From a virus: a stretch of 64,000 bases of DNA. Position 1 is the stretch's first letter. Each line of letters begins with the position of its first letter. Below are positions 13,617-54,395 of this stretch, piece after piece. Location: positions 62,001 through 126,000 of IMG/VR virus record IMGVR_UViG_3300020391_000290; one strand, 5' to 3'. Position numbers and translations under genes: made by a program. Below the pieces are notes generated by a model. The model saw only the letters and a program-made list of their open reading frames with translations. It ran no database searches and had not been told where the DNA came from.

Positions 13617-15112
13617 TTGACTTATTATTACTAAATGTTCCTCGTATTAGTTTAGTATATCCGCCAGCTGGCACTAGTCTGCTAAAAGGAGTGGTAGAAC
13701 AGCAAGGATTTACTTGTACTGTAAAAGATTCTAACTTTGAATTATTGGATAGTATAAAAAATGATGAAGATTTTGAAGAAATAACAAATTATTTTACAAT
13801 TCCTAATGCGGAGGTTACTACACATTGTCAAAAAATTATAGATCAATGGTATACTGATCTAGTAAATTATATTTTAAAACTAAATCCAAGACATGTTGGC
13901 ATTAGTGTTTTTACGTTTGAATGTCAAGTGGCAACTAGGGAATTATGTAAACTATTACGTGCAGTATATAAAGGTAAGATTATAATTGGAGGTGCTGGAT
14001 TAAGCACAACAGGCATAGCAACACAAGTTAACGATTTTGGAAACATGTTGTTATCAAGCAAACAGGTTGATTATTATGTACGCGGTGAAGGTGAACATGC
14101 ATTAATAGATATATTAAAAGAAAATACAGGAAGTGGTATTAATAACGACAACTATGTACAAATAGAAGATCTAAATAGCCTTGCTTATCCTAATTACGAT
14201 GACGTAATTAAATATGAATATCATTATAGTATAGAAAATATACAATTACCAATTACTACAAGTAGAGGATGTGTAAGAAGGTGTAGTTTTTGTGATATAC
14301 ATGCATTTTGGAAAAAGTATACATATAGATCTGGAGAAAATATAGCTGGTGAGATGATTTCACATTACGAAAAGTATGGAGTACGTGATTTTTTCTTTAC
14401 AGATAGTCTAATAAACGGAAATTTAAAAAGTTTTCGACAACTATGTGACTGGTTAGTAAACTATTATGAAGCTAATAATCTTCCTGACAAATTTTTTAGT
14501 TGGGGAGGTCAATGGATTGTGAGGACAGAAAAACATTTAAGTCCAGATGACTATAAAAAAGCCGCAAGGAGTGGAATGAATGGGTTAGCAATGGGCGTAG
14601 AAAGCCTAAGTGAACAAATAAGAAAAGATATGAATAAAGGGTTTAAAAATGTTGATATTGATTATACACTAGAGCAGTTTAGATTGCACGGTATAAATTG
14701 TTATTTCCTAATGATAGTAGGGTATCCTACTGAAAAAGAAGAACATCATTTAGAAACAATGCAAATGTTTACAAAATATCAAGGTTATGCAATTGACGGA
14801 ACAATATTTGGTGTGAACTTAGGAGGAACTTTAAGCATAGACGAAGGAAGTCCTTTACATAAAGGCAGTATACACTTTGGATTAGAGCCAACAACAGAAA
14901 ATGAAGAATTATTTGGTTTAGATTGGACAAGCAAAGAAAATCCAAAACTTACTTTACTAGAAAGAATAAATCGACGAATAGACCTACAAGAATTACTTAT
15001 GGATTTAGGTTATACTGTATGGAATGGTGATCATCAATTAAAAAGACTTAAAGCAAGTTATGAGCGTATTAAACAAAATACCTATCACTTTAAAGATATA
15101 CTACACTCATAG
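13613..15112 (+). CDS. B12-binding-type radical SAM protein
   Basis: A 499-residue protein starting with GTG that overlaps the previous stop. The N-terminal 190 residues have a Rossmann-like layout of cobalamin-binding radical SAM proteins (ISLVYPPAGTSLLKG; KIIIGGAGLSTTG; VRGEGEHAL), but the cobalamin-ligand motif DxHxxG is not present, so B12 binding is uncertain. The radical SAM core has C220-x3-C224-x2-C227 (CVRRCSFC), with GVESLSEQIRK and MIVGYPTE as later family motifs. It lies between two groups of cassette enzymes. Family membership is secure; reaction unknown. Confidence 0.8.
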   Translation: MIDLLLLNVPRISLVYPPAGTSLLKGVVEQQGFTCTVKDSNFELLDSIKNDEDFEEITNYFTIPNAEVTTHCQKIIDQWYTDLVNYILKLNPRHVGISVFTFECQVATRELCKLLRAVYKGKIIIGGAGLSTTGIATQVNDFGNMLLSSKQVDYYVRGEGEHALIDILKENTGSGINNDNYVQIEDLNSLAYPNYDDVIKYEYHYSIENIQLPITTSRGCVRRCSFCDIHAFWKKYTYRSGENIAGEMISHYEKYGVRDFFFTDSLINGNLKSFRQLCDWLVNYYEANNLPDKFFSWGGQWIVRTEKHLSPDDYKKAARSGMNGLAMGVESLSEQIRKDMNKGFKNVDIDYTLEQFRLHGINCYFLMIVGYPTEKEEHHLETMQMFTKYQGYAIDGTIFGVNLGGTLSIDEGSPLHKGSIHFGLEPTTENEELFGLDWTSKENPKLTLLERINRRIDLQELLMDLGYTVWNGDHQLKRLKASYERIKQNTYHFKDILHS

Positions 15113-15569
15113 TGGACACACAAATGGCTGGCCTTTGTGTAGAATATTATGGGATAATAAACAAGTAGCAAACTTTAAAGCGGATGGACAAGAAATAGAG
15201 TTTACAGTACTCCCTAAACCTGAAGGTATCAGTACACTTATAGTAGAACATTATGGGAAAAATGTATATACTGAACATGATAAATTTATAGAAGTAATTG
15301 CAATGAGAGTGAATAACATACCATTAAAAAATATACTATGGGAATCAACACAATATCCAATAACTGCACCCTGGGACGAGCCGTGGCAAGAAGACGGAAA
15401 TTTATATCTCGGACATAATGGTCATATTGTTTGGAAATTTAATAATCCTATGTTGTTAGATATACAAAAAAGATTAGGAGTACGGAGACGTACTCAAGAA
15501 GGACAGGAAAGTACAAAACAAGTGTTAAATGAAATAAAAGAATATTTTAAAAATGAAAAAGATAGATAA
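15060..15569 (+). CDS. Hypothetical beta-rich protein in radical SAM cassette
   Basis: A 169-residue protein with a beta-sandwich-like pattern (ITLKIYYTHSGHTNGWP, then IEFTVLP, STLIVEHYGK) reminiscent of small carbohydrate-binding or carrier domains. It also has a LYLGHNGHIVWKFNNP segment and a charged C-terminal helix. The assigned ATG overlaps the radical SAM gene by 53 bases; no closer ATG or GTG in frame was found, so either the overlap is real or the start is non-canonical. No catalytic motif is visible. Confidence 0.65.
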   Translation: MSVLNKIPITLKIYYTHSGHTNGWPLCRILWDNKQVANFKADGQEIEFTVLPKPEGISTLIVEHYGKNVYTEHDKFIEVIAMRVNNIPLKNILWESTQYPITAPWDEPWQEDGNLYLGHNGHIVWKFNNPMLLDIQKRLGVRRRTQEGQESTKQVLNEIKEYFKNEKDR

Positions 15570-16194
15570 TTTTTTTACTAAAAAAGATTGCGAATGGTTT
15601 TTGTGGTATAATACTATTTTACCTGACACAAGAGATAATGGATTGCGTTTAATGAGTATGACACACTTTGCACAACCATTTTTTGCACGTAAACTTACGG
15701 ATTTACATAAACGTTTGCCAGATAATGAAGAAATTACTACATTAAATATTAATTTTGACTATGGAGCAGGTGGGATACATAGTGATGGATATATTGAACA
15801 TGATAAGAATGATGAAATTGCCAACAGTTATCTTATTCCTATTATAGTAAATGAAGTAGACAAATATTATACAATTGTATTTGATCAAGTTAGTAAGGAA
15901 GCAGTTACATTCAACGGCGAAACAGGTTTAGGAGATAAAGGTATAACCACTTATAAGCAAATTACTAGTGATGATTTTGGTCTAAGCAACGAACCTTTTG
16001 ATAAAGAAATTTATGACATGTATCTTACTCATTTAAACTACAATGCTTTAAAAGGACTGACAGTAGCACATGTACATGAATGGACACTAGGAAGTGCAAT
16101 GACATGGCCCAGACAGAATTTTCATGTAAGTGCAAACTTTGTAAATAAAAATACTAGAGCAAGTGTGTTAATTACAACGAGATACAAATGTTAG
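15553..16194 (+). CDS. 2OG-Fe(II) dioxygenase-like protein
   Basis: A 213-residue protein with an HxD iron motif, GGIHSDGYIEHD (H at about residue 75). A distal His lies in NFHVSANFVN near residue 193, followed by NTRASVLITTRY, where the Arg would bind 2-oxoglutarate. This is the layout of double-stranded beta-helix dioxygenases. It overlaps both neighbours by 17 and 7 bases. It is the second oxygenase in the cassette and could act with the flanking radical SAM enzymes. Substrate unknown. Confidence 0.65.
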   Translation: MKKIDNFFTKKDCEWFLWYNTILPDTRDNGLRLMSMTHFAQPFFARKLTDLHKRLPDNEEITTLNINFDYGAGGIHSDGYIEHDKNDEIANSYLIPIIVNEVDKYYTIVFDQVSKEAVTFNGETGLGDKGITTYKQITSDDFGLSNEPFDKEIYDMYLTHLNYNALKGLTVAHVHEWTLGSAMTWPRQNFHVSANFVNKNTRASVLITTRYKC

Positions 16195-16493
16195 AATTTG
16201 ATTTTAAAAACAATGGTAGTATCGTTTATGATATCGAAATAAAAGACAGAGGAGCTAAGATACGTTTTTATGGAAAAAACTACAATACAAATACTGATGA
16301 TTATGTTATAATAGAAAATATATATTATAAAGACTTAATACTTCCAGAACTATTAGAATTCAGTAAAATGACTACAGATAACAAAGATTATAAAGAATTG
16401 ACTAATGTAAATTATATAAGTTTTAATGGCATATGGGAAATTAAGTTTACAGACAATGATTTGAAACAGATATTAAAGAAAAAATTGACATGA
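16188..16493 (+). CDS. Hypothetical protein between oxygenase and radical SAM genes
   Basis: A 101-residue protein with FDFKNNGSIVYDIEIKDRG and a C-terminal YISFNGIWEIKFTDNDLKQ; the pattern suggests a small alpha/beta or beta-sandwich domain. There are no Cys or His clusters and no membrane segment. It overlaps both neighbours by 7 and 4 bases. No function is recognised; it could be a carrier or substrate for the adjacent enzymes. Confidence 0.65.
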   Translation: MLEFDFKNNGSIVYDIEIKDRGAKIRFYGKNYNTNTDDYVIIENIYYKDLILPELLEFSKMTTDNKDYKELTNVNYISFNGIWEIKFTDNDLKQILKKKLT

Positions 16494-17884
16494 GTGAAGG
16501 AAATCCTGCAAATAATTTAGAAGTTTTACAAAACACTTTACCTCCTTTGGAGTTTAAAAAACTTCATTTAGATAAACGTAGTAGTAGTTTTTGTGGTGCG
16601 AAATGGTACAATGCAACAATATGGCTTGGTAGTGGTATGACGACTAGTTGTCATCATCCTTTGCCACATAAAATTGATCCTATTGCAGTACAAACTAATC
16701 CAAAATTATTACATAACACACCTGAGAAAAAGGAACAGAGGCGTCAAATGCAGTGTGGTGAACGTCCTAGTGGATGTGAATACTGTTGGAAAATTGAAGA
16801 TATGGGCTCACAACATGTTAGTGATAGAGTTTATAAAAGTTGGATATATACAGATGAGGAACTTACTGATGCATTTACAAGAGACTATAATGAAGATTTT
16901 GAACTTAGAAGCCTTGAGATCGCCTTTGACAGGACATGCAATTTTGCTTGTAGTTATTGCAATCCTGCGTTTTCAAGCACTTGGGTAAAAGATCTTAAAA
17001 AAGACGGACCATATAAAAACTTACAAAGTGATGGAAGAGGACACTTTACACATCCACACGATTCTAATCAATTGTATGGATATCAAGAATTTAATCCTTA
17101 TGTGGAAGCGTTTTTTAAATGGTGGGATAGTGACTTACATAAAACACTTAGGCAATTAAGAGTGACTGGCGGGGAGCCGTTAATGAGCCCAGATCTTTGG
17201 AAACTTATAGAATGGTTTGAAAAGAATGGAGATAAAAGTACGACAAGTCTAGCAATAAACAGTAATTTGGTTGCAAAGCCTGAACTGATACAACGTCTAA
17301 TAAATGTTAAACGACATCTGCCTAGTTTAGCCGTTTATACAAGTGCAGAAGCAATAGGTGGGGCGGCAGAATACATACGTGATGGAATGAACTTTACACA
17401 ATGGTGGGATAATATATGTCGTTTACACGAAGCAGATATCGATACACATTGTATGTGTACAATAAATGCACTTTGTTTAGAAACATTACCTGACTTAGTA
17501 GAACGCATTATGAAGCAACGCAAAGAGTATGGTATGCGTTTCGCAGTTATGAGCTTTAATATATTACGTTTTCCTAGTTTTCAAAGTCCATTAGTTTTAC
17601 CAGATAATATTAAACTGAGACACGTAGATAGATTAAAGCAATTACGTAAAACTTATGCACCTAAATTGTTAAATAGAACAGATTGCTTTCATGAATTTGA
17701 ATTAGGACAATTAGATAGATTAATAGAATATATACAAGTAGTAGATAAACCTCACAGCGAAGGATTTGATATGCCTAGATTACATAATGATTTTAGAAAG
17801 TTTTATCAGCAATATGATATAAGAAGAAATAAAAATTTTCCTAAAACTTTTCCAGAACTAGAGGAATGGTATGAAACACTATGA
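16490..17884 (+). CDS. Radical SAM protein with N-terminal cysteine cluster (copy B)
   Basis: A 464-residue protein. The core motif is C150-x3-C154-x2-C157 (CNFACSYC), followed by TGGEPLMSP near residue 225. N-terminal Cys are at C35, C54, C89, C96 and C99. It is a clear paralogue of copy A (12258-13616), sharing FCxAKW, HHP/YHP, HKI, LHNT, CxYCW, SDRxY and a C-terminal DIRRNKNFPKTFPEL that parallels DKRRNTNFLKTFPEM. The shared C-terminus also appears in looser form in the other cassette radical SAM proteins. It overlaps both neighbours by 4 bases. Confidence 0.85.
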   Translation: MSEGNPANNLEVLQNTLPPLEFKKLHLDKRSSSFCGAKWYNATIWLGSGMTTSCHHPLPHKIDPIAVQTNPKLLHNTPEKKEQRRQMQCGERPSGCEYCWKIEDMGSQHVSDRVYKSWIYTDEELTDAFTRDYNEDFELRSLEIAFDRTCNFACSYCNPAFSSTWVKDLKKDGPYKNLQSDGRGHFTHPHDSNQLYGYQEFNPYVEAFFKWWDSDLHKTLRQLRVTGGEPLMSPDLWKLIEWFEKNGDKSTTSLAINSNLVAKPELIQRLINVKRHLPSLAVYTSAEAIGGAAEYIRDGMNFTQWWDNICRLHEADIDTHCMCTINALCLETLPDLVERIMKQRKEYGMRFAVMSFNILRFPSFQSPLVLPDNIKLRHVDRLKQLRKTYAPKLLNRTDCFHEFELGQLDRLIEYIQVVDKPHSEGFDMPRLHNDFRKFYQQYDIRRNKNFPKTFPELEEWYETL

Positions 17885-19197
17885 CAGATGACTTAGACAA
17901 TTACTATAAAAATTATGATTACCATACACGTAAACCTGTTTATGTTAAGATTGAAGATTTAAATGAAACACAACGTAGTAGACTTTTGACTAGTAAAAGT
18001 TTTTGTATACTTCCATGGGTACACCTACATGCATTTCCAACAGGTGAAGCATATCCTTGTTGTTTAGCACGTATGGATCAACCTCTTGGTTCGCTACGTG
18101 AAAGTTCAATGAAAGAAATATGGAACAGTACTGATCTTAAAAAAATGAGAGAAAATATGATGCAAGACAAATCTTGTAATCAGTGTACTAAATGTTATGA
18201 GCAAGAAGAAAATGGTTTTGTAAGTATGCGTTATAGTGCTAACAAAAATCATGGCCATCATATTACAAGAGTCGACGAAACTGAACAGGATGGGTATTAC
18301 AAAGATTTCAAATTAACTTATTATGATATCCGTTTTAGTAACTTATGTAATTTAAGTTGTAGATCATGTGGTGATATTTTTAGCAGTAACTGGGTAAAGG
18401 AAGCAAAAAAATATGGTTGGTTAAAACCAAGCCATCCTAATGTAAGTTATGCTGGCAAATACGAAATGGATATGTGGGAGCAACTGCAACCTCATTTGGA
18501 TAGTATCGAAAATGTTTACTTTGCCGGCGGTGAACCGCTAATGATGAAGGAACATTATAATTTATTAAATGCACTTATTGAAAGAGGTAGAACAGATGTA
18601 CGTCTAAACTACAATACAAATTTTACGGAATTAATATTTAAAAAACAAGATGTACTAGAATTATGGAATAAGTTTGATGTAGTAAGTATTGGTGCTAGTT
18701 TAGATGCAAGTTACGACAGAGGCGAACTTATGCGTAAAGGTACAAATTGGACTAAAGTTGTAGAAAATCGCAAACGTATGTTAGAGATTTGTCCAACCGT
18801 AGATTTTTATATTAGTACAACTCTTAGTGTAATGAATGTTTATCATATATTGGATCTGCATAAAGAATGGACTGAACTTGGACTAATTAAAGCACAGGAT
18901 TTTAATGTCAATATACTTCAAGATCCTGAACGTTTTAGAATAGATATACTACCAACAGATATGAAACAGGAAATTAACGACTTATATAAAGAACACATAG
19001 AATGGTTAGAACCACAGGATAATCTTACTCGTGCAACAAATGGATTTAAAAGTGCAATTACTTTTATGAATGCAAAAGATAATAGTGCATTAATCGATGA
19101 TTTTGTAAAACGTACAGACGAAATGGATCGCTTTAGGAACGAAGGATTCTTTTCAGTATTTCCAGAATTAGAAAGACTTCGAAAGTATGTCAAGTAA
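17881..19197 (+). CDS. Radical SAM protein with N-terminal CxLPW/PCC domain (copy C)
   Basis: A 438-residue protein. The N-terminal domain is FCILPWVHLH with C42, then YPCCLAR (C60, C61) and SCNQCTKC (C99, C102, C105). This is the pattern of a SPASM/twitch auxiliary-cluster region placed before the core. Core: C156-x3-C160-x2-C163 (CNLSCRSC), then AGGEPLMMK near residue 215. The C-terminus has FFSVFPELERL. It forms a second subfamily with copies D and E. It overlaps the upstream gene by 4 bases and the downstream one by 11. Confidence 0.85.
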   Translation: MTDDLDNYYKNYDYHTRKPVYVKIEDLNETQRSRLLTSKSFCILPWVHLHAFPTGEAYPCCLARMDQPLGSLRESSMKEIWNSTDLKKMRENMMQDKSCNQCTKCYEQEENGFVSMRYSANKNHGHHITRVDETEQDGYYKDFKLTYYDIRFSNLCNLSCRSCGDIFSSNWVKEAKKYGWLKPSHPNVSYAGKYEMDMWEQLQPHLDSIENVYFAGGEPLMMKEHYNLLNALIERGRTDVRLNYNTNFTELIFKKQDVLELWNKFDVVSIGASLDASYDRGELMRKGTNWTKVVENRKRMLEICPTVDFYISTTLSVMNVYHILDLHKEWTELGLIKAQDFNVNILQDPERFRIDILPTDMKQEINDLYKEHIEWLEPQDNLTRATNGFKSAITFMNAKDNSALIDDFVKRTDEMDRFRNEGFFSVFPELERLRKYVK

Positions 19198-20380
19198 ATG
19201 TATTCTTCCATGGATTAGTATAGAAACAACACCTTCAGGCACAACAAGGCCTTGTTGTTTATATACAGATGAAATCCCAAATGTAAACTTAGCTACTTCA
19301 ACATTACAAGATGCTTTTAATAGTAAATTTATGCGTAATTTAAGACGTGCTTTTAGGCGTGGCGAAAAACCTGAGGGTTGTAGAAACTGTTGGCGTGAAG
19401 AAGACGCAGGTAAAAAGTCAAAACGACAATATATGCTTGAAAAGTTTAGTGATATTAATGTACAATACAAAGATAATAATGGTGAAGATTTAGTATTTTT
19501 AGATCTTAAACTAGGTAATATTTGTAATCTAAAATGTCGTATTTGTGGAAGCTGGAGTAGTAGCAAATGGGCACAAGAAGAATTAGACTATGTAGAAGAT
19601 TCTACAAATCATATTGCAAAAAAATGGTTAAAGGATGGACAGTGGCCCAGAAAGAGTCCACGTTTTTGGGATAATATAGATGAATTGTTGCCTCAAATAA
19701 AATATTTTGAATTTACTGGTGGCGAACCGTGGATGATAAAACAACATTTTGAATTATTACAAAATGCCGTAAATAAAGATTATGCCAAAAATATTGATAT
19801 ACACTACAATACGAATACAACACAGTTTCCTAAAGATCCGACTATATGGAAACATTTCAAAAATGTACAAATTGCTTTCAGTGTTGATAATACAGGAGAA
19901 CGTTTTGAGTATGAACGTTATGGAGCAAAATGGAAAACGTCTAATGCAAATATTAAAAAGGTACACGCCCTAAGAGAAAAAGGTTATCCTATTACTACAC
20001 AACTATGTTGTACATGGAATATACAAAATATTTTTTATTTAGATGAAATACTTACGTGGGCAAAAACAATGACTTTCGATAGCATACATTTCAATGTAAT
20101 GCACGATCCATGGGAATTTAGTTTAAGCAAAACACCTATTCATGCACGTAGTCCTATTATGTTGTATTTACAAAAGCAACAAATTTTGCATAGACAATAT
20201 AAAAATGATATTATCGCATTGAAAACGTTAGTAGAAAAAGCGAACATGAACGAAACACCTGAAGAACCAGAGACCGGTCAATCACTTCATAAAAAATTAA
20301 GACAAACTGATTTGTATCGTAATCAAAACTTTGCACTTAGTCATACAAAAATAGCACAAGCAATAAAATATGAACTCTAA
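19187..20380 (+). CDS. Radical SAM protein with N-terminal CxLPW/PCC domain (copy D)
   Basis: A 397-residue protein with the shortest N-terminus of the set: C5 in KCILPWISI, C23-C24 in RPCCLY, C65 and C68 in GCRNCW. Core: C113-x3-C117-x2-C120 (CNLKCRIC), followed by GSWSSSKW, a motif shared with other copies (FSSTW, FSSNW, LSSAW). TGGEPWM occurs near residue 184. It overlaps both neighbours by 11 bases. Radical SAM assignment is secure; the acceptor is unknown. Confidence 0.85.
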   Translation: MSSKCILPWISIETTPSGTTRPCCLYTDEIPNVNLATSTLQDAFNSKFMRNLRRAFRRGEKPEGCRNCWREEDAGKKSKRQYMLEKFSDINVQYKDNNGEDLVFLDLKLGNICNLKCRICGSWSSSKWAQEELDYVEDSTNHIAKKWLKDGQWPRKSPRFWDNIDELLPQIKYFEFTGGEPWMIKQHFELLQNAVNKDYAKNIDIHYNTNTTQFPKDPTIWKHFKNVQIAFSVDNTGERFEYERYGAKWKTSNANIKKVHALREKGYPITTQLCCTWNIQNIFYLDEILTWAKTMTFDSIHFNVMHDPWEFSLSKTPIHARSPIMLYLQKQQILHRQYKNDIIALKTLVEKANMNETPEEPETGQSLHKKLRQTDLYRNQNFALSHTKIAQAIKYEL

Positions 20381-21647
20381 GCCAGAAAATTTATGTATGG
20401 CTCCTTGGACCCATACTTATCTGAGTCCGCAAACAGAACGCAGATTATGTTGTGCTAGTAGAGAACCTGCACAAAATTTTAAACAATACATCGATACAAC
20501 GGAAGGTACTAATGAATATAAACCGTCTACGCTAGAAGAATATTGGAACGGTGAAAATATTAGACGTATTCGTATGCAAATGTTAAACAATGTAGTACCA
20601 CCTGAATGTGTAGTGTGTGATAAAAAATTATTAAATCAAGATGTATATAGAGATTACTTTAATCATTTATTTGCACATAAATGGAATGACGTCGTTGAAA
20701 ATACACAAGATAATGGATATACGACTATGAAACCAATTAGTTGGGACTATCGTTTTAGTAATTTATGTAACTTTAAATGTAGAATGTGTGGGCCTATGTT
20801 AAGTAGTGCTTGGGAAACAGAAGCACGTAAACAGGATAAAATAGAACCTTGGATGGAAAAGTCAGTAAAGACTAAAATTGAAACATTTCAAAAGGACACC
20901 GTTGAAAAGGAGTTTAACACTGCAGTTGAAGAACATAGAATTGAAGAAGTCTATTGGGTTGGCGGTGAACCACTTATGTATGAGCAACATTGGCGTTATA
21001 TGCAACGTATTATTGAATTAGGTGATGGACCAGGACTATATGCAAGATATAATACAAATTTACATAGAGTAAATTACAAAGGGGTAAATTTGTATCAAGA
21101 CATTTTAGATAATATACGTGATTGGCAAATATGTGCAAGTTTAGATGGAACTAGTGAAGTAGGTGAATACATAAGGACAGGATTAGTATATGATACATGG
21201 AAGAAAAATTTTGAACAAGGATTAGCACATGCAAGAAATAAACGCATGATGCGTATTGATTTTACATTAACCTTACCTGGACTATTTGATATTGTAAATA
21301 TATGTAGGTTAGCTAGAGAATATGATGTAGATATATTAGCAAAAGTAGTATTTGCATTTACTCCAGATATTGCAATGAGTCCTCTTTTTTTACCTAGAGA
21401 TATTTTGCACTATATAGTCAATAGTTTACTATTGACAAGTGAAGTAGATAATAGTACAATAATAAACATGCTCAAAAGTTTATTGGATAGACCAACATTT
21501 GAAGAAGAATTTCCTAATGAATATAAAAAAGCAAGAATAAAAGGCAAATGGCGTATGCAGGCAATGGATAATTTACGAGGTGGAATGAAGTTTGTAGATA
21601 CTTTGAAAGATTACAAGGCAAAAGAATTTTGGAATGGAATTTGTTAA
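20370..21647 (+). CDS. Radical SAM protein with N-terminal CxxPW/CC domain (copy E)
   Basis: A 425-residue protein. N-terminal Cys: C9 in LCMAPWTH, C27-C28 in RLCCAS, C80 and C83 in PECVVC. Core: C133-x3-C137-x2-C140 (CNFKCRMC), then LSSAWETEARK and VGGEPLMYE near residue 200. It belongs to the same subfamily as copies C and D. It overlaps copy D by 11 bases and is followed directly, with no gap, by the APS-kinase-like gene. It is the last of the radical SAM run. Confidence 0.85.
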   Translation: MNSKPENLCMAPWTHTYLSPQTERRLCCASREPAQNFKQYIDTTEGTNEYKPSTLEEYWNGENIRRIRMQMLNNVVPPECVVCDKKLLNQDVYRDYFNHLFAHKWNDVVENTQDNGYTTMKPISWDYRFSNLCNFKCRMCGPMLSSAWETEARKQDKIEPWMEKSVKTKIETFQKDTVEKEFNTAVEEHRIEEVYWVGGEPLMYEQHWRYMQRIIELGDGPGLYARYNTNLHRVNYKGVNLYQDILDNIRDWQICASLDGTSEVGEYIRTGLVYDTWKKNFEQGLAHARNKRMMRIDFTLTLPGLFDIVNICRLAREYDVDILAKVVFAFTPDIAMSPLFLPRDILHYIVNSLLLTSEVDNSTIINMLKSLLDRPTFEEEFPNEYKKARIKGKWRMQAMDNLRGGMKFVDTLKDYKAKEFWNGIC

Positions 21648-33735: not shown

Positions 33736-34134
33736 TTAACCTTTATTATCCGGTCGGAATAATTTTAGATTGTTTATATCTATGTTCTGTCCTACGCCAT
33801 ATCCAATTAAACAACCTACATCTGGAGTAGGGCCTATTTCTGTAAGTGCCCATTCTTTAGTTTCCGGATTTATGCTTAAAAATATATCTACTCTAATTAT
33901 TCCAACATCAGGTTTATTACCTATGCCAGTTCCACGCCATACTATTTTTAGTCCTTTAGATATACCAATTTTTGCAATTTGATCTAAAGGACCGCATGAT
34001 ATATTTCTTTCTGTCCATGTTGGTGTCCATTCGAATGGTCTTTCTTTTGGAATTTCCTGTGCATCTAAAGGTTTGAATATACCCATTAATATATAAACTG
34101 CAACTATAAATAAAATTCCGTATAAGATCTTCAT
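33736..34134 (-). CDS. Membrane-anchored hypothetical protein
   Basis: A 132-residue protein from ATG 34134, preceded by GAGG; a longer frame runs into the upstream gene. Residues 1-25 (ILYGILFIVAVYILMGIF) form a signal anchor. The rest is a soluble domain with ISCGPLDQIAKI and GCLIGYGVGQN, two Cys that could form a disulfide outside the cytoplasm. It may sit in the inner membrane facing the periplasm. It lies just downstream of the VWA protein. No function recognised. Confidence 0.6.
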   Translation of the reverse strand: MKILYGILFIVAVYILMGIFKPLDAQEIPKERPFEWTPTWTERNISCGPLDQIAKIGISKGLKIVWRGTGIGNKPDVGIIRVDIFLSINPETKEWALTEIGPTPDVGCLIGYGVGQNIDINNLKLFRPDNKG

Positions 34135-43428: not shown

Positions 43429-44406
43429 TTATGTACCCCAGGCATTTCCAAAGAGCGAGATATGTAATCGTGGAGTGAACCTCCAACCTCTTTCCATGCA
43501 AAGGTTCGCAACTTCTTGGACATTGAGGTTGTACTCTTCAGACCTGCCACCCAATGGCATGAGATACACAGGGCAATCCAAGCCTGCTCTGCGATATTCA
43601 CTGACAGCTCTACCAGCCTCATCAATATCGGTCCTGTCAGCGACAACAAACTTGAGGTAAATGTCACTGCCGTCCACACTAGCATAATCACTAGCCACTT
43701 GAGGCTTAATAGCAGTCTCCCAAGGTTCTCCTGAAACTGAAAGTTTTGGGGAACAACTCCAAGTGACTGTAAATCTATCCTGCTGGTTAAGGTAGTCTTT
43801 AAAATCTTTGTGTAAAAATTGTGTAGTGTTTGTTTCAAACGTAACATTTTTTAAGTCTTTCATTTTTGGATGTTCGAATAAATCGATATACATACGTTGC
43901 CATGCAAGTAAAGGTTCACCTCCTGTCATAATTAAATGTATATCTTGTCCGTTCCCCATAGTCCATTTACCTTCTGGCAATAAACTAATTAGGTGCTCAA
44001 CGACTTCTGGTATTGTCCTAAGCATATTAAATTCTTTAAATTCAGGATAGATACTTGCATATGTATCGCAACCTGTGTGTATTATAGGCAAATCAGTAAA
44101 CTGCTTTGTATTTTTATGTACGTTATTGTCTAGTAAGCCTTTTACTTCTTCGTTATATCTTATGCCAGCCTTTTGTTTTTCATCTCTCATGAGTTCAGTA
44201 CGAGGTAGACCAAAGTTCATACAACGAAAGTTACAACCGAATGTACGTAAGAATACACTAGGTACTCCTACAAACTTGCCTTCACCTTGTACACTATAAA
44301 ATGCTTCACTGTATCTAAGTTTTGCTTCTTTTTTTACTACAGGTTTTGGTACGTCTGTTACACCTGCTTGTTCAAATTTAAATTGAAAAGGTAAATCAGT
44401 ATTCAT
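43429..44406 (-). CDS. queE: 7-carboxy-7-deazaguanine synthase (QueE), split cluster motif
   Basis: A 325-residue radical SAM protein. EAFYSVQGEGKFVGVPSVFLR (split over residues 34-54) is the QueE substrate/SAM N-terminus; TGGEPLL lies at 161-167 and TFETNTTQF at 189-197. The Fe-S Cys are C58 and C62 (CNFRC), but the third, expected two residues on, appears to be C113 in GCDTYAS, after a 50-residue insertion. QueE converts 6-carboxy-tetrahydropterin to CDG. It is followed by the GNAT-like gene and preceded by a hypothetical and queD, so the two pathway genes are nearly adjacent. Confidence 0.85.
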   Translation of the reverse strand: MNTDLPFQFKFEQAGVTDVPKPVVKKEAKLRYSEAFYSVQGEGKFVGVPSVFLRTFGCNFRCMNFGLPRTELMRDEKQKAGIRYNEEVKGLLDNNVHKNTKQFTDLPIIHTGCDTYASIYPEFKEFNMLRTIPEVVEHLISLLPEGKWTMGNGQDIHLIMTGGEPLLAWQRMYIDLFEHPKMKDLKNVTFETNTTQFLHKDFKDYLNQQDRFTVTWSCSPKLSVSGEPWETAIKPQVASDYASVDGSDIYLKFVVADRTDIDEAGRAVSEYRRAGLDCPVYLMPLGGRSEEYNLNVQEVANLCMERGWRFTPRLHISLFGNAWGT

Positions 44407-45244
44407 AAATTAACTTTCTTAATTGTGTTGTTGTCTTGGGCCATTTATTTAATTCATAGCATTTAATTTCATAACCTCTGTCACGTAATCTACGTTGTAT
44501 TTCTACTTGATCCATTAGAGTGCAATTTTCCATAACTATATTTACATCTTTTATTATAGCATCTACATAAGAATTAATCAACCTGTCCTTATATAAGTAA
44601 GGTTCATTATTGATCCAATCCTTATGTAATAATTTTATTTCTGAATCTGTCCTTATATTTTTAATATCTAACCAATCTGTTAAATTGTTTATAGTTTGTA
44701 AAAAATTGTCTCTTAATTCATTTATTTGTATTAGAAAAGTTTTATCTTGTTTAAGATTTATTAATTCTTTGTAACCTGTTTGACTTTGTGTTTGTTCATA
44801 TGTCCACAAACTTAAAAATTCACGAAGCTCCCATGTACTTTTGCCTTTACCCTTCCATTCGGATAATCCTGGTAATCCATTTTTTTGATTTTCATGTTGT
44901 ATCCAGCCTTCTTTTCGTATTTTAGTTTGTCTGTTATTTAACCACCAAACCCAGTCATTTGGGCCTGGGTATAATGAAACAATTTTATCATATACAACAA
45001 ATAGTCTCTCGTAGGCTTTTTTCATGGTATCACCTACTTCAGTAATTGGATGAAGTATACAGCAATCAATAGGATTTGAAATTGCACCGTCTACGTTAAT
45101 TCTATGTGTATTATCCCAACTATGACTTGTGTTAGTATTTTTATTGAAGGGTCTATATTCTAATGGGTATTGGCCTTGTAACCAATGTAATGTCCAGGCA
45201 ACAAAATTGCCATAACATCCTCCTGGAAATGTTATACAATACAC
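44396..45244 (-). CDS. Hypothetical protein between queE and queD
   Basis: A 282-residue protein with a GTG start overlapping the queD stop. The N-terminus, YCITFPGGCYGNFVAWTLHW, resembles the start of phage sulfotransferase-like proteins, where a Gly-rich loop binds a phosphate. No second PAPS motif is found, so the link is weak. Later parts are Trp-rich and helical (DWVWWLNNRQTKIRKEGW). It overlaps both flanking que genes by 11 and 1 bases, so it may be functionally linked with them. Confidence 0.6.
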   Translation of the reverse strand: MYCITFPGGCYGNFVAWTLHWLQGQYPLEYRPFNKNTNTSHSWDNTHRINVDGAISNPIDCCILHPITEVGDTMKKAYERLFVVYDKIVSLYPGPNDWVWWLNNRQTKIRKEGWIQHENQKNGLPGLSEWKGKGKSTWELREFLSLWTYEQTQSQTGYKELINLKQDKTFLIQINELRDNFLQTINNLTDWLDIKNIRTDSEIKLLHKDWINNEPYLYKDRLINSYVDAIIKDVNIVMENCTLMDQVEIQRRLRDRGYEIKCYELNKWPKTTTQLRKLIYEY

Positions 45245-45699
45245 TACTCAATATCTCGTCTGTAGATTGCACTATTTGCACCATGTTCACTACACTCCAC
45301 CTCAACTACAAAGCATCTTCCAGTTGTTTCTTTCTTTATATGTGCATCAGCAAATTCAAATGCATGTTTTGCAAACATTTCTGCACCAACACCATCCATC
45401 ATAGTGACTTCACATAAACCTTTTTTCTCTAGTTCATAAAAGTCTTCCATATGTGGGTCTTGACTATCAATTACAACCTTATGATCAAACTGTTCTTCAA
45501 GCCATGCTTTTATAGGCTTCAGTCCACCAAAGTCTACTGCCCAGTTTTTATTATCTAGTGTATGACAACCAAATGTAAATTTAAATCCTAAACTATAACC
45601 ATGCAATAAATTACAATGCGAATGATCCGCATTAGGTTGTCTAAATACTGCACTTAATCCTATATTGTGTCCATATGTTTTTGTGCTATAAAAAGCCAT
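45244..45699 (-). CDS. queD: 6-carboxytetrahydropterin synthase (QueD)
   Basis: A 151-residue PTPS-family (T-fold) protein. ADHSHCNLLHGYSLGFKF holds the catalytic Cys29 and zinc His33. WAVDFGGLKPIKAWLEEQFDH matches the DF-x-x-LK and DH motifs, and VEVECSEHGANSA ends the fold. The usual HGH zinc motif is HGY here, with other His nearby (H26, H28) that may compensate. It would turn dihydroneopterin triphosphate from FolE into 6-carboxy-tetrahydropterin. It has its own sigma70-like promoter. Confidence 0.85.
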   Translation of the reverse strand: MAFYSTKTYGHNIGLSAVFRQPNADHSHCNLLHGYSLGFKFTFGCHTLDNKNWAVDFGGLKPIKAWLEEQFDHKVVIDSQDPHMEDFYELEKKGLCEVTMMDGVGAEMFAKHAFEFADAHIKKETTGRCFVVEVECSEHGANSAIYRRDIE

Positions 45700-47219: not shown

Positions 47220-50200
47220 CTAGAACTTTAATTGTACACTCATACCAACAACTTTTTCAATCTCTTTTTGTATGGAACTAACACCAGTACGTATTTCTGC
47301 AAAAGTATTGACGTGTCCTGTAAGTCCTAACTTTTTTGTAAAATTGTCAATTTCTGTATTACCAGTTTTTTGTATCTTAAAAGTGTAGTATGTACCAAAG
47401 TCTATTTCACGTTTGCTACTTTTAAAATTTAGGTTTTTATCTTCATAGTTTACATCACCTCCGAGTGTTCTGCTAGTAGGAACATTATAGTTCAAAGATG
47501 CATCTTCAATTGTTACTGGTTGACTTATGTTAAAGCCTAGTTTATGACCATCAGTAGGTTCTACTTCATAACCAACTGTTGCAGTACTACTAACAACATT
47601 AGCATTTTTTGTAGTAAGTAAACTGTTACTTGTGTCAAATTTTACATTACTATAACCTAATCCTGCTTGTGCATAAAATCCACCTTTGTTGTAGTTATAG
47701 TTTGCATAAAAAGTACTGCTATCAACTGTAGTACCTAATGTACCTGAGAAACTATTACCTAAGTAGTGTCCATCACTAACACCAAATCCAAATTCAATGT
47801 TGCTATTATCATCTATCGCATATTTAGGAAAAGTAATATTTTGATCTGCATTCATATATGTGCTATAGTAGTTTACTGCACCCATTTGTTCTGCTACACT
47901 AACGGTTCTTGTGTCAACACTCTGTGCCATATTACCTAAGTCTATATAAAAGTCCCGTTCAAAACTATCTAGAACCATTACACTAGTCAATGCTTGTATC
48001 TGTTTAGAACTAACTCCGCTAACATTAGCACCACCAACAATATTGCTGACACCACCGTTGGTACGACCAGTAGTAGGAATCCCGGTTGCACCAACTGGTC
48101 GTGTAGCTTTATCCATGTCAAGTAATCCTTGTCCATGAATATTATCATCATAACCTGCAATATTTTTATTGCCAGTTACAAGAACTAGTTGTACTAAGTG
48201 TTTGCCTTTCATGTGTGGCCACATTTGATGTAGTATTGCAATACTGCCGGTGACTACAGGAGCAGCCATACTAGTACCTGTCATTGTTACGTAACCGCCG
48301 TTTTCTGCAGTACTTGTAACATTTGTACCACCTGCCATTATATAAAAGTCTTTAACTTTTTTTGCATCTATACATACATTATTTTTCATTGTAGCACAAA
48401 CAGTACCTGCTTTATTACTAGAACTATTAAGTTTATTATTGTTTGTATCCCAATTTCCTACAATAATCATTTGTCCATCTAGTATTAGGTTACCATTCGA
48501 ATCTGTCGCATGAGCCATCTGATTCATTCCTGCAGAATAATCCCATCCTGCATTACCGGCTGCTTTAACAAGGACCTGCTCTGAACCTAAAGCAGTTTTC
48601 CAATATCCTGCTTCTTGTACAGAGCCATTATAGCCATTTACACCGTAATACCAATGAGTACTGTAATAGTCTCCATCTGCTTTTTTAACTATACTATTTC
48701 TAAATCCTGTATCATAATTTTGTTCTGCACTAACGTTTATTGCTACGGAGCCTTTATCTCTACCCCATGCCGCGGCTTGTCTAGCATTGCCGAAACTATA
48801 TTGATATCCACTAGATACTTTAGCAACAGCAATCTTTGCGTCAAAGGCTGCTCCATGCATACCAACGTTATTCTTTTCACCAGCTGCAATTCCTGCAACA
48901 TGTGTGCCATGCGAACTACTGTTATCGATAGTCGTTCCTGTATAATCAATTGTATATTTTATATTGTCGTCTAAGTCTACGTGATTTATGTTTGCACCAG
49001 TATCTGCAATTGTAATTAAACTATCTTTTCCTGTCCAACCTCTACTATAAGCAGTGCTAAAATTACTTACACTTAATTGTTTATTTGCAATATATTTGTA
49101 TTCATTTTTTTCATATGTAGTTGCATTACTATTATATCCAGGTGTCCTTGTACCCATATCAGCATGGTCATCACCAATTATTCCATCATCTGTATCCACT
49201 ACACTAATTATAGTATCGGTATCAGTACATGTTTCACCTTTGTTTACTTTGCCTCTTGTGAAATATTCTGTACTATCTATAACATCTTTTGTTGTATTAT
49301 CACTATACTTTGTTCTAGTAATAGTATTTCTTTTATCGAAATGCTCATGAAATTCAATTATACATTTAGTAACACGTCTAGTTGTAGTCTTTAAACTGCC
49401 ACTATATGTCACTATATCTTTTGTAGTAGTAGTTTCATTGCCGTATGTTTTATCTAAATGACTATATTCTAAATTATCCACAAAGGTTCTAGTACTAATT
49501 ACAGTAGGTTGACCAGGATCTGCTTCTACTAGTCTAGTGCTTAAAGTCTCTGTTCTAGTAGTCGAAGTCACTTTATCTTTACTAGTTGTAACAGGAGTTA
49601 CAGTGACAACAGGATCATCTACAATTGTTTTTGTTGCACCATTTGCATATTTTATTAAAGTTGTTTTTGTACTAGTTTCTGTAGTAGTAACAGTAGTCTT
49701 AGTCGTTACAGTAGATGTATCAGTGTATGTTCTTATAGTAGTATACAAAGTATCACCATTATCTTGTAATACACCTTCATCTTCTTTGTCTACATATGTA
49801 GTGACTACAACAGGTGAACTGTCTATACTAGTAGTATCTTGACTTGTGCTTATATCAAACGTTTCCGTAGTATCTATTATTGTTGCTTCAATATAAGTTG
49901 TACTTATTATTTTATTTTCTGAAGTGCTTGTTTCTGCATATGTAGTATTATACGTAATAGTTTTTGGACCATTTACTATTACTACACTACCATTGTTATA
50001 TGTATTTGTATATTTTATATATTCTGTTGTTGAAGTGGTACTAGGAACCTTAGTTGTATGTGTATAGGTTCTTGTAACAACAATTTTAGTCCTACCATCA
50101 TCTAAATTAGTTTCTATAGTATTGTCTACGAACGTGGAAGTTGTTATGGATTCACCAATTACAGGTTCACTTTTAGTTGTTATTTTTTCTTCAACTGTAT

Positions 50201-51425
50201 TTGTTATAGACTTTTCAACTATTCTAGTTGATATTACTTCTGTTCTTGTTGTAGTGATAGGATTACTTATAGTTTCTGTAGTTTCTGTATTTTTTGTAAT
50301 AATTGCATCACCGATAACTTTTTTACTTTTGCCATTTTTAAAATTTATTGTTTTAGTAGGTATACTAGTTTGTACAGTAGTAATTGCGGTTATTGTTGTT
50401 GTTGTACTTTTATCTGTATAAGTTCTTGTAGTTGTAAATAATTTATCACCGTTGTTATTAAAAACACCATTATCTTCTACATCTATATAAGTTGTAGTCA
50501 CTACAGGATCATCTACAGTAATTACAGGATCTTCTTTATATGAAGTTACACTATAGGATATAGATTCGCTTTCTATAGAAGCAGAGGTAGTAGTTGTACT
50601 AATTACTTTATCTTCTGTTGCAATTGTAGTAGTGTATGTAGTATTGGGTGTTTTTGTTTCTGGACCATTTGCAATGTTTGTGCTTCCATCACTGTAAGTA
50701 TATACATATTGTGTATAAGTAGTGGTTGTTATTGTACTAGGAGTTTTACTTGTGTGTGTATATGTTCTTGTGACTGTGGTTGTAGTGGTCCCATCATCAT
50801 TTGCAGTTTCAGAAGTTGCATCAACATATGTAGTTGTTACTGTAGGTTGACCAATTACTGGATCACTATTAATAGTAATAGTATTTGTAGCAGTGCTTTT
50901 TAAAGTTTTTACACCTTTATCTTTTTTAAATTGTTCTACAGTTTTGCCACCTTTACCAATTGCTTCTGCATAATCAGCATCGTCTTTTAGTGCAATTGCT
51001 TTTATTTCTACAAAGTCTTCATTCGTATCATCATATTGTTTATTATCTACCATGTTTTGCCAAAAAGTCTCTTTACCATCATAGTAAAGTGCTTTGTAAC
51101 CTTTAAGCATAAACCATGCACGTTGTAAAGACATTTTTGTTCCATTAACGGTAACATTATATTTTGCTAATTCAGTTGTATCTATATTTTCATTTGCACT
51201 CACCCACTTAAATATAGATAAACTTTCTGTAGCATCAACTAATCCATCGCCAGCAATTTTTTGAATTGCACTTGCAAATCCATTACTAATTGCTGCGGTA
51301 TTAATACTGCCTAAGTCACTTATTTCTATTGGTTTAAAATTGGTGCCACCGCCACCACTGCCACCACCGCCACATGCGGATAGTGCAGATATTAAGGCTA
51401 TGCCTGTCAGTGCTTTTGTTTTCAT
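47220..51425 (-). CDS. Lipoprotein S8-family (subtilisin-like) autotransporter protease
   Basis: A 1401-residue protein. The N-terminus is a lipoprotein signal (basic MKTK, hydrophobic core, LSAC lipobox with Cys18), followed by a Gly-rich linker. Residues about 187-700 are a Thr-rich region with five related units (TYVD...TRTYT, spacing roughly 105-120). The subtilase domain holds Asp808 (IADTGAN), His839 (SHGTHVAG) and Ser1052 (GTSMAAP). About 1140-1401 is a beta-barrel-like translocator ending in VQLKF with a terminal Phe, the outer-membrane insertion signal. The architecture resembles Neisseria NalP. It has its own sigma70-like promoter and AGGAG site. It probably acts at the outer surface of the infected host. 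Confidence 0.85.
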   Translation of the reverse strand: MKTKALTGIALISALSACGGGGSGGGGTNFKPIEISDLGSINTAAISNGFASAIQKIAGDGLVDATESLSIFKWVSANENIDTTELAKYNVTVNGTKMSLQRAWFMLKGYKALYYDGKETFWQNMVDNKQYDDTNEDFVEIKAIALKDDADYAEAIGKGGKTVEQFKKDKGVKTLKSTATNTITINSDPVIGQPTVTTTYVDATSETANDDGTTTTTVTRTYTHTSKTPSTITTTTYTQYVYTYSDGSTNIANGPETKTPNTTYTTTIATEDKVISTTTTSASIESESISYSVTSYKEDPVITVDDPVVTTTYIDVEDNGVFNNNGDKLFTTTRTYTDKSTTTTITAITTVQTSIPTKTINFKNGKSKKVIGDAIITKNTETTETISNPITTTRTEVISTRIVEKSITNTVEEKITTKSEPVIGESITTSTFVDNTIETNLDDGRTKIVVTRTYTHTTKVPSTTSTTEYIKYTNTYNNGSVVIVNGPKTITYNTTYAETSTSENKIISTTYIEATIIDTTETFDISTSQDTTSIDSSPVVVTTYVDKEDEGVLQDNGDTLYTTIRTYTDTSTVTTKTTVTTTETSTKTTLIKYANGATKTIVDDPVVTVTPVTTSKDKVTSTTRTETLSTRLVEADPGQPTVISTRTFVDNLEYSHLDKTYGNETTTTKDIVTYSGSLKTTTRRVTKCIIEFHEHFDKRNTITRTKYSDNTTKDVIDSTEYFTRGKVNKGETCTDTDTIISVVDTDDGIIGDDHADMGTRTPGYNSNATTYEKNEYKYIANKQLSVSNFSTAYSRGWTGKDSLITIADTGANINHVDLDDNIKYTIDYTGTTIDNSSSHGTHVAGIAAGEKNNVGMHGAAFDAKIAVAKVSSGYQYSFGNARQAAAWGRDKGSVAINVSAEQNYDTGFRNSIVKKADGDYYSTHWYYGVNGYNGSVQEAGYWKTALGSEQVLVKAAGNAGWDYSAGMNQMAHATDSNGNLILDGQMIIVGNWDTNNNKLNSSSNKAGTVCATMKNNVCIDAKKVKDFYIMAGGTNVTSTAENGGYVTMTGTSMAAPVVTGSIAILHQMWPHMKGKHLVQLVLVTGNKNIAGYDDNIHGQGLLDMDKATRPVGATGIPTTGRTNGGVSNIVGGANVSGVSSKQIQALTSVMVLDSFERDFYIDLGNMAQSVDTRTVSVAEQMGAVNYYSTYMNADQNITFPKYAIDDNSNIEFGFGVSDGHYLGNSFSGTLGTTVDSSTFYANYNYNKGGFYAQAGLGYSNVKFDTSNSLLTTKNANVVSSTATVGYEVEPTDGHKLGFNISQPVTIEDASLNYNVPTSRTLGGDVNYEDKNLNFKSSKREIDFGTYYTFKIQKTGNTEIDNFTKKLGLTGHVNTFAEIRTGVSSIQKEIEKVVGMSVQLKF

Positions 51426-51460
51426 TTGTAACTCCTACCTTACAATTAAAATATACACTT

Positions 51461-51488
51461 ATAATAACACTGTCTGTAGTAGTGTCAA
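51461..51488 (-). promoter_or_regulatory. sigma70-type promoter of the autotransporter gene
   Basis: TTGACA (51488-51483), 16 bases, TATTAT (51466-51461), with TGT before the -10. It starts four bases after the stop of the small gene at 51492 and places transcription about 30 bases before the autotransporter ATG. Confidence 0.65.
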
Positions 51489-52816: not shown

Positions 52817-53681
52817 TTAATTCTCTTTTCAAATCTAAAGTAACACAATGATGTCCGCCACCAAGTGTCCTGCTATGTTTAAATGGAATAGTATGACATA
52901 CTACGCCATATTTTTCTAATGCTTCTTCAAGTTTAGGACAATCATCAATGACTGCAAGTTTTGGATTAATCATTAGAAAATTTAAAAGTATGTAGTTACT
53001 AGCGAACGCTTCCCCAACAAAACTTTTTTCTTTCAAATCTTCTTTTCCTAACCAGATAATGTCCCAATTTTTAAAACACTTAGGAAGTGTCTTTGAAGAT
53101 ACTCTATCCTTATTCACCAATACAAGACCATTTCTTATAGGAACAAATGTACTATCTATATGTATACCACTGTAAGTTTCAGTAGTTTCTACAATATGAT
53201 TAGGAAAATGTCTCTGTAACCATTTTGCACCTTCAGCATTTCCGCTTGGGCTTATTAAGTATAATAAAGTATTATTTAATCTACAAACATTGGCTGCATC
53301 AAAAAATATTCCTTTGTCCCTAGGTACCTGTATTGTATCATTTTGTGTAGCTATAGGTAAGTAATTTATTTCATCGTTTCTGCATTGGTATTGCATGTTA
53401 CAATCTATGACAGTATCTCCTATAATTAGTACCCTATCACGAGGACAATAATTATACATTTCGAAAGGAGTAAAATTATGCCTTATTGGTCTATGTACTT
53501 CAACTCCTTCTTGTTCTAGTATTGTTACAAACTTTTTTAAGTCTGCATCAGCCTGTGCAGTAACAATACTAGGATAAGGCCCAGGTTTACTAAAATGACA
53601 ACCTTCTGGTTTATTTGCACCCCAAGCCAAACCAACTATTATACTTTTTAGTTGATCCCATTCATTCGTTGTGTAGATCAT
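52803..53681 (-). CDS. Amidinotransferase / arginine deiminase-family protein
   Basis: A 292-residue guanidino-group-modifying enzyme (pentein fold). Expected motifs appear in order: EWDQLKSIIVGLAWG at the N-terminus, IFFDAANVCR (metal/substrate Asp), GIHIDSTFVPI (catalytic His and Asp) and GGGHHCVTLDL near the C-terminus with the nucleophilic Cys. The family includes glycine and inosamine amidinotransferases. It overlaps the folE stop by one base, so the two are translationally coupled. Whether it acts on a pterin/deazaguanine-related compound, an amino sugar or polyamine is open. Confidence 0.8.
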   Translation of the reverse strand: MIYTTNEWDQLKSIIVGLAWGANKPEGCHFSKPGPYPSIVTAQADADLKKFVTILEQEGVEVHRPIRHNFTPFEMYNYCPRDRVLIIGDTVIDCNMQYQCRNDEINYLPIATQNDTIQVPRDKGIFFDAANVCRLNNTLLYLISPSGNAEGAKWLQRHFPNHIVETTETYSGIHIDSTFVPIRNGLVLVNKDRVSSKTLPKCFKNWDIIWLGKEDLKEKSFVGEAFASNYILLNFLMINPKLAVIDDCPKLEEALEKYGVVCHTIPFKHSRTLGGGHHCVTLDLKRELNESI

Positions 53682-54364
53682 TAACAGGCAAATTCTTGTT
53701 GCAGTTTTATATTATCCATAAATTCTTTTTTAGTACCCATGTCTTCATTAAATGCACCACGTAGTACGGTTGTTTGTGTTAAACTACTGTGAGCACCTAT
53801 ACCCCTATTTTCACAACAACCATGTGTTGCTTGTAAATAGACGCCAACATTTGCACTGCCTGTTGCTTTTTGTATTTCATTTGCAATTACATTGTTTAGT
53901 TCTTCTTGTAGTGTGCCACGTCTTGCACACCATTGTGCAATTCTTGTATACTTACTTAATCCAATTAAATTATCCGCCGCGATTATTCCTATATATGCAA
54001 CTCCTGCTACTGGCTGATGATGGTGCGAACACATACTTTTTATTTCGCTTCTCACAACTAACATGCCTTCATATCTATCTATACTGTTATTAGGAAATGC
54101 AGTAGCATTAGGCATAGGATTATACCTACCATTCATTAGTTCATTTATATACATTTTTGCTAGCCGTCTACCAGTATCCATACTATTAGGATCATTAAAT
54201 CTATCAATTACTAGTCCATCTAATACAGATTCAAACTTAGGGGTCAATTCGTCAATTAATGCTTCTTTATCACCTTCTTGTAATACTTGACTTATATTAT
54301 CTCCTGCCCAGTATCTTATCCCTGCGTCTTTTAATCTTGTAATTATTTCTTTACTTTTGCTCAT
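53681..54364 (-). CDS. folE: GTP cyclohydrolase I
   Basis: A 227-residue FolE from ATG 54364, which has GGAG at six bases; an in-frame upstream ATG is less likely. SMCSHHHQPVAGVAYIG holds the zinc Cys and the catalytic His residues. LSKYTRIAQWCARRGTLQEEL is the family signature (split over about 140-160), and GVYLQATHGCCENRG holds the second zinc Cys. It converts GTP to dihydroneopterin triphosphate. This is the first step toward 7-deazaguanine via QueD and QueE, and also serves folate. Confidence 0.92.
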   Translation of the reverse strand: MSKSKEIITRLKDAGIRYWAGDNISQVLQEGDKEALIDELTPKFESVLDGLVIDRFNDPNSMDTGRRLAKMYINELMNGRYNPMPNATAFPNNSIDRYEGMLVVRSEIKSMCSHHHQPVAGVAYIGIIAADNLIGLSKYTRIAQWCARRGTLQEELNNVIANEIQKATGSANVGVYLQATHGCCENRGIGAHSSLTQTTVLRGAFNEDMGTKKEFMDNIKLQQEFAC

Positions 54365-54395
54365 TTTATACTCCGAGTTATAGTGGCGTGTCACT

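What the first reader, a model, noticed from the sequence alone, without database searches (positions are those of the whole stretch)
47220..51425. Phage-encoded lipoprotein subtilisin autotransporter with repeat passenger
A complete secretion design is encoded in one gene: lipobox, Thr-rich repeat stalk, intact S8 triad (D808, H839, S1052), and a beta-barrel-like end with terminal Phe. This is a bacterial surface-protease layout like NalP, on a phage transcript with its own sigma70-type promoter. It might strip host surface proteins during infection to block superinfection, release nutrients or aid lysis.
Basis: partly seen in the sequence, partly recalled or inferred. Interest (0 to 1): 0.78.

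Follow-up and report, generated by a model that had tools for sequence, protein, structure and literature searches.

The report
Phage-encoded outer-membrane surface protease
A virus of bacteria carries a gene for a subtilisin-like protease that looks built to be displayed on the outside of its Gram-negative host, probably early in infection, and more than a hundred uncultivated phage contigs carry relatives of it although no isolated phage we could search has a full copy.

Summary
AlphaFold2 gives that domain long, strongly amphipathic strands. Its best solved-structure matches are outer-membrane barrels (EspP first, NalP in the top ten), but TM-scores are low (~0.32-0.35). It does not match Pfam's autotransporter barrel PF03797, so it works like an autotransporter but is not shown to be a member. 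A profile search found 113 relatives in IMG/VR; the window's own record and three large contigs (197-307 kb) carry T4-type capsid genes. The triad is invariant; a terminal Phe/Trp/Tyr is usual. Long-stalked lineages have a lipobox, short ones an ordinary signal peptide, and a close relative has one more repeat. Bacterial homologues exist. A sigma70 promoter with extended -10 lies 35 bp upstream, and similar sites recur before homologues (52% against 5% of random stretches), suggesting early expression rather than a virion or late-lysis role. Most likely an early surface protease remodelling the infected cell, perhaps removing receptors; that function is untested.

The parts
47220..51425 (-). 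Whole gene, 1401-aa lipoprotein S8 protease with C-terminal outer-membrane-barrel-like domain
   Evidence: ORF list; homologues along full length
51461..51488 (-). Sigma70-type promoter TTGACA-16-TATTAT with extended -10 TG, 35 bp before ATG
   Evidence: similar sites upstream of 52% of 44 homologues (window included) against 5% of random stretches
51432..51436 (-). Shine-Dalgarno AGGAG
   Evidence: sequence
51372..51425 (-). Signal peptide with lipobox LSA-C (Cys18), followed by a Gly/Ser run
   Evidence: sequence; lipobox conserved in the long-stalk lineages
50901..51371 (-). Gly/Ser linker and N-terminal domain aa 19-175, no family match
49221..50900 (-). Thr-rich stalk aa 176-735: five ~115-aa repeats at aa 176-291, 294-408, 408-523, 525-638, 641-722, alternating two types, the last one partial
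   Evidence: relative L002 has six units
48132..49031 (-). Peptidase S8 domain aa 799-1098; catalytic D808 (49002-49004), H839 (48909-48911), S1052 (48270-48272)
   Evidence: PF00082 E=2.3e-27; triad invariant; Foldseek to subtilisins E about 1e-19
47856..48107 (-). Linker aa 1107-1190, conserved GIPT.GR motif then a low-confidence stretch
   Evidence: alignment, pLDDT below 50 in part
47223..47840 (-). Outer-membrane beta-barrel-like domain aa ~1196-1401, about ten long strands
   Evidence: AlphaFold2 mean pLDDT 83; top PDB fold match EspP, NalP rank 10; amphipathicity test 0 of 5000 permutations
47223..47261 (-). Last strand with terminal Phe (beta-signal-like ...GMSVQLKF)
   Evidence: terminal F/W/Y in 48 of 56 aligned homologues

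Best explanation
The gene encodes a surface-displayed, outer-membrane-anchored subtilase made by a large T4-type myovirus from its own host-sigma70 promoter early in infection. Inferred route: Sec export, lipidation at Cys18, insertion of the C-terminal barrel by the host BAM machine, and passage of the protease and stalk to the cell surface. If the protease is cut from the barrel it would stay tethered by its lipid through the long Thr-rich stalk, as NalP and SphB1 are thought to use their lipid anchors. On the surface it would cut accessible proteins of the infected host. The most likely benefit is remodelling of the host surface: removing receptors or other outer-membrane proteins so that further phages cannot adsorb and released progeny do not stick to debris. 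Shown: sequence anatomy, conserved triad, fold resemblance, phage residence, recurrence of the promoter. Inferred: lipidation, translocation, activity, timing, substrate, benefit. I put about 0.75 on the surface-display design and about 0.35-0.4 on the receptor/superinfection benefit.
For: S8 domain with invariant triad in all aligned relatives covering it and an S8 fold in the model. Signal-peptide-like N-termini in the complete relatives: lipobox in long-stalk lineages, ordinary type in short ones. C-terminal domain: mean pLDDT 83, long strands; most of the best PDB matches are outer-membrane barrels, led by the EspP beta-domain (prob 0.99), NalP 1uyo prob 0.95; alternating hydrophobicity far above permutation (21.2 against 10.2 +/- 2.3); terminal Phe in 45 of 56, Trp/Tyr in 3. 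Some bacterial homologues show weak OprB-porin similarity in this domain. Phage residence: gp23 in the window's own record and in three large relatives of 307, 303 and 197 kb; conserved gene order in about 30 contigs. Sigma70-type promoter recurs upstream of homologues, is shared by other transcription units of the window, and is not seen before the tail-type genes and gp23. Precedents: phage T5 lipoprotein Llp disables its receptor FhuA (PMC9586334); NalP, lipid-anchored, releases surface proteins (PMC5472700).
Against: No PF03797 match, and profile-profile comparison with real PF03797 domains is insignificant (prob 10.8%). Fold-match TM-scores are 0.32-0.35 with E above 0.001, so closure and strand count are not established. 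No direct evidence of lipidation, translocation, proteolysis, substrate or exclusion. One phage lineage has about 60-70 residues after the barrel, unusual for a BAM substrate. Neighbouring genes are nucleotide and queuosine-type metabolism and give no functional hint. Timing is inferred from promoter type only.
Confidence: 0.6

Rival explanations
1. Surface or released protease for foraging: it digests host-surface and environmental proteins so that the infected cell gains peptides and amino acids (auxiliary metabolic role).
For: Neighbourhood rich in metabolic genes; large genome with many auxiliary genes; long stalk could reach away from the cell.
Against: No peptide uptake gene was noticed beside it; stalk length is variable and the stalk is absent in one lineage, so reach is not essential; early sigma70 expression does not discriminate.
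Confidence: 0.2
2. Lysis or release factor: an outer-membrane lipoprotein protease that weakens the envelope or helps progeny leave.
For: Lipoprotein plus outer-membrane location would place it where spanins act (general knowledge).
Against: Early-type promoter; no lysis gene recognised among the conserved neighbours; autotransporter-like topology would face outwards.
Confidence: 0.1
3. Virion structural protein or tail-associated protease used at entry.
For: One lineage (L024, L032-L037) has it next to a gene whose product could be structural by eye.
Against: Signal peptide and lipobox, membrane-type strands and terminal Phe; located among metabolic genes in other lineages; promoter unlike the regions before tail genes.
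Confidence: 0.05
4. A recently captured bacterial gene, or host DNA in a misassembled contig, with no phage role.
For: Homologues occur in gammaproteobacterial genomes, one with the same lipobox and poly-Gly start.
Against: The close homologues found are nearly all phage-borne and form several deep phage clades; gene order conserved among about 30 contigs; the catalytic triad is strictly conserved.
Confidence: 0.05

Closest known systems
NalP / SphB1, lipidated subtilisin-like autotransporters (type Va, group 15 of PMC9289746)
   Same: Signal peptide with lipobox, S8 protease and C-terminal outer-membrane barrel in one polypeptide; the NalP translocator is among the top PDB fold matches.
   Different: No PF03797 similarity; no ~200-aa beta-helix between protease and barrel; a long Thr-rich repeat stalk lies between lipid anchor and protease; encoded by phages.
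Ssp of Serratia marcescens (8e7f), solved subtilisin-like autotransporter passenger (PMC9977779)
   Same: Best PDB sequence match of the protease (E=3e-14, aa 788-1106); rank 16 by fold.
   Different: Order of stalk and protease, barrel family, lipid anchor.
phrog_3677 'protease' and UniProt A0A6J5TBB6 / A0A6J5L9S5 (uncultured Caudovirales phage)
   Same: Phage S8-type proteins; the two UniProt models share the C-terminal fold (TMq 0.65 and 0.64), so relatives are already deposited.
   Different: Named only as a protease or a repeat-domain protein; the secretion design is not stated in the names.
S8 proteases of Bacillus and other Gram-positive phages (SP-15, Goe3)
   Same: Phage-encoded S8 domain.
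   Different: The match covers only the protease part.
Phage T5 Llp superinfection-exclusion lipoprotein (PMC9586334)
   Same: Phage-encoded outer-membrane lipoprotein that alters a host surface receptor; model for the proposed benefit.
   Different: Small, periplasmic, non-enzymatic.

Membership tests
Peptidase family S8 (PF00082) | S8 domain above curated cut-off | tested here: met
   96.5 bits against cut-off 21.8
Peptidase family S8 (PF00082) | Asp/His/Ser triad | tested here: met
   D808, H839, S1052; invariant in all aligned homologues covering them
Classical type Va autotransporter | Translocator matches PF03797 | tested here: not met
   No hit at E<=1 in the window protein or in 7 relatives; hhalign against 16 PF03797 domains prob 10.8%
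Classical type Va autotransporter | 12-stranded outer-membrane beta-barrel at the C-terminus | tested here: inconclusive
   Barrel-like model, top PDB match EspP, NalP rank 10, but TM 0.32-0.35; about ten long strands
Classical type Va autotransporter | Terminal aromatic residue (beta-signal) | tested here: met
   Phe in the window protein; F/W/Y in 48 of 56 homologues; the other eight end in other residues, mostly with an extension after the barrel
Classical type Va autotransporter | Sec signal peptide | tested here: inconclusive
   Pattern by inspection in the window protein and complete relatives; no signal-peptide predictor was available
Subtilisin-like autotransporters (group 15 of PMC9289746) | N-terminal ~400-aa protease followed by ~200-aa beta-helix before the barrel | tested here: not met
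   Protease at aa 799-1098 and only about 100 residues of partly low-confidence linker before the barrel; the stalk is N-terminal
Lipidated autotransporters (NalP, SphB1) | Lipobox [LVI][ASTVI][GAS]C | tested here: met
   LSAC ending at Cys18; lipidation itself not testable
Lipidated autotransporters (NalP, SphB1) | Surface exposure and proteolysis of surface proteins | not testable with these tools
   Needs experiment

The most novel reading that the evidence does not exclude
Large T4-type phages use a self-contained secretion module, with a translocator barrel unrelated in sequence to PF03797, to put a lipid-leashed protease on the infected cell early in infection, shaving the host surface as an enzymatic superinfection-exclusion and receptor-destroying device. 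The stalk length would be tuned to the host envelope by gain and loss of repeats.
Probability: 0.3. Interest if true: 0.88.

Novelty: new variant of a known kind. Interest (0 to 1): 0.64.

Why it matters
The phage exclusion lipoproteins read about here (Llp, Cor) are small blockers. An enzyme placed on the outside of the infected cell by a phage-encoded, autotransporter-like protein would be a different way for a virus to control its host surface, analogous to receptor-destroying enzymes of animal viruses. The family is widespread in uncultivated phages yet was not found complete in isolates, and its barrel type has no Pfam model. It joins phage-encoded CsgGF pores (PMC7029224, PMC9004378) as evidence that phages re-equip the host outer membrane.

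Tried and rejected
Curli-type secretion genes, known from pelagimyophages, were sought in this record: no CsgG match. PDB sequence search with the barrel profile gave only chance hits. Profile-profile comparison with genuine PF03797 domains was insignificant, so family membership was rejected. Two matches among annotated phage records (Pseudomonas phage Y5, a faecal 'Bacteriophage sp.') come from records marked UNVERIFIED; Y5 does not match the barrel profile and looks like bacterial sequence, the other matches it weakly. The T4 late promoter motif TATAAATA was looked for before structural genes as a contrast and not found there, so 'early' rests on the sigma70 sites alone. Literature searches found no description of a phage-encoded autotransporter-like protease, but only open-access full texts were searched.

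Full report
What is there. The ORF at 47220-51425 lies on the minus strand and encodes 1401 aa from an ATG preceded by AGGAG. Pfam finds one domain, peptidase S8, at aa 799-1098 (E=2.3e-27); PHROGs gives phrog_3677 'protease'; NCBIfam gives sub-threshold matches to mycosin and to the autotransporter protease EprS. The closest solved sequence is the passenger of the Serratia autotransporter Ssp (8e7f). The N-terminus MKTKALTGIALISALSAC-GGGGSGGGG has a lipobox with Gly after the Cys.

The stalk. Aa 176-735 is 29% Thr and is truly repetitive: the best self-alignment offset is 232 residues (40% identity over 174 residues, score 314 against a shuffled maximum of 77 +/- 10). Five units of about 115 aa alternate between two types, the last partial. 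The relative L002, 77% identical overall, has six units and is 124 aa longer, while L004 and most others lack recognisable units. Stalk length is therefore labile in evolution.

The C-terminal domain. The window protein and seven relatives have no PF03797 match. AlphaFold2 with 27 sequences (aa 745-1401, pLDDT 80) gave a subtilisin fold for the protease and long strands after it; with 48 sequences (aa 1100-1401) mean pLDDT is 83 and pTM 0.75, with block values mostly of 85-97 through the barrel region. Foldseek's best PDB match is the EspP autotransporter beta-domain (prob 0.99); NalP, BAM-bound EspP, AaaA and other outer-membrane barrels fill most of the first ranks, all with E above 0.001 and TM about 0.3 or lower. 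Residues alternate between hydrophobic and polar along the long strands far more than permuted residues do (21.2 against 10.2 +/- 2.3, 0 of 5000). Terminal Phe is present in 45 of 56 aligned homologues, Trp or Tyr in 3; the other 8 are mainly a lineage with about 60-70 extra residues after the last strand. Some bacterial homologues carry weak OprB-porin similarity in this domain, one above Pfam's cut-off. A profile of genuine PF03797 domains from environmental genomes does not align significantly. I conclude that it is an outer-membrane-barrel-like domain of a sequence family not covered by PF03797; closure and strand number remain open.

Who carries it. The record is a 133,896-base IMG/VR virus contig with a T4-type major capsid gene closest to those of large T4-like phages of Sinorhizobium, Vibrio and Pseudomonas (285-470 kb). 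A first scan of IMG/VR found 37 relatives, a profile scan 113. Of 13 large relatives tested, contigs of 307, 303 and 197 kb carry gp23; the others may be fragments. Gene order around the protease (GTP cyclohydrolase, protease, phosphoribosyltransferase, QueD-type, QueE-like, exonuclease) is conserved in many of the contigs, with other neighbourhoods in other lineages. Architectures form a series: 660-690 aa (signal, S8, barrel), 880-920 aa (intermediate, ordinary signal peptide), and about 985-1525 aa (lipobox and long N-terminal region). No annotated phage isolate has a full homologue: matches in Bacillus and other phages cover only the protease, and two odd matches lie in unverified records. 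BFVD holds two predicted proteins of uncultured phages with the same C-terminal fold, so relatives are deposited but not described as secretory.

Bacterial relatives. A gammaproteobacterial MAG contig with dTDP-rhamnose-type genes on both sides, and a TamA/BamA-like gene nearby by eye, encodes a homologue (L039). In 19 of 369 genomes of its class the C-terminal domain profile matches, one with the same lipobox and Gly run (L122). In the tree the phage sequences form several deep clades, with L039 inside one and L122 on a long branch in another (the long-branch caution printed there applies). The gene was probably exchanged with bacteria long ago and is phage-resident now.

Expression. TTGACA-16-TATTAT with TG sits 35 bp before the ATG. 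A scan of the region finds as many promoter-like sites as shuffles do, so recurrence matters: 52% of 44 genes of the family have a site of at least 10/12 within 120 bp upstream against 5% of random stretches of the same loci. Other transcription units of the window's minus strand start with the same kind of site; the tail-type genes at the window's left end and gp23 do not. In T4-type phages host-sigma70 promoters are the early class (general knowledge), so early expression is the best inference, not a demonstration.

How it most likely works. Export, lipidation, BAM-mediated barrel insertion and outward passage of protease and stalk, by analogy with NalP and SphB1, whose lipid anchors keep the protease at the surface (PMC9289746, PMC5472700). 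Early display of a protease on the infected cell would most plausibly remove surface proteins, including phage receptors; T5 reaches a similar end by another route with Llp (PMC9586334). Foraging is the main rival; lysis and virion roles are disfavoured by the promoter and the signal sequence.

Filing. It is an S8 peptidase. It works like a lipidated subtilisin-like autotransporter. It is not filed as a classical type Va member, because PF03797 and the protease-then-beta-helix order were tested and not met. It is a new variant of a known kind.

Noticed in passing
window, both strands (only site 34105-34112 +): The T4 late-promoter core TATAAATA occurs once against 17.4 +/- 3.9 expected from shuffles, a strong depletion suggesting that the motif is functional and avoided; yet it is not found before the tail-type genes in the window.
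   Followed up: partly
window 33641, 35425, 38557, 41765, 45699, 51425, 54638, 60252 (minus), 8415 (plus): Genes that look like starts of transcription units are preceded by near-consensus TTGACA-16/17-TATNNT promoters, several ending about 30-35 nt before the start codon, in the same style as the protease promoter.
   Followed up: partly
window 12258-21647: A run of several large proteins with Cys-rich motifs (radical-SAM-like by eye) downstream of tail-fibre-type genes, apparently paralogous.
   Followed up: no
window 43429-45699, 53681-54394: GTP cyclohydrolase I, 6-pyruvoyl tetrahydropterin synthase (QueD-type) and a QueE-like gene suggest a deazaguanine pathway, perhaps DNA modification (QueE by eye).
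   Followed up: no
L024, L032-L037, L076, L096, L106: One lineage carries a conserved extension of about 60-70 aa (HGLxYDLxTDxFxPI at its end) after the last barrel strand, unusual for a BAM substrate.
   Followed up: no
L162 (Pseudomonas phage Y5, OQ572407.1): UNVERIFIED phage record with a 1014-aa S8 protein of autotransporter look and bacterial-looking neighbours; probably bacterial sequence in the record.
   Followed up: partly
L040 86-1375 +: A glutamate-synthase small-subunit-like oxidoreductase gene (by eye) beside gp23 in the same phage record.
   Followed up: no
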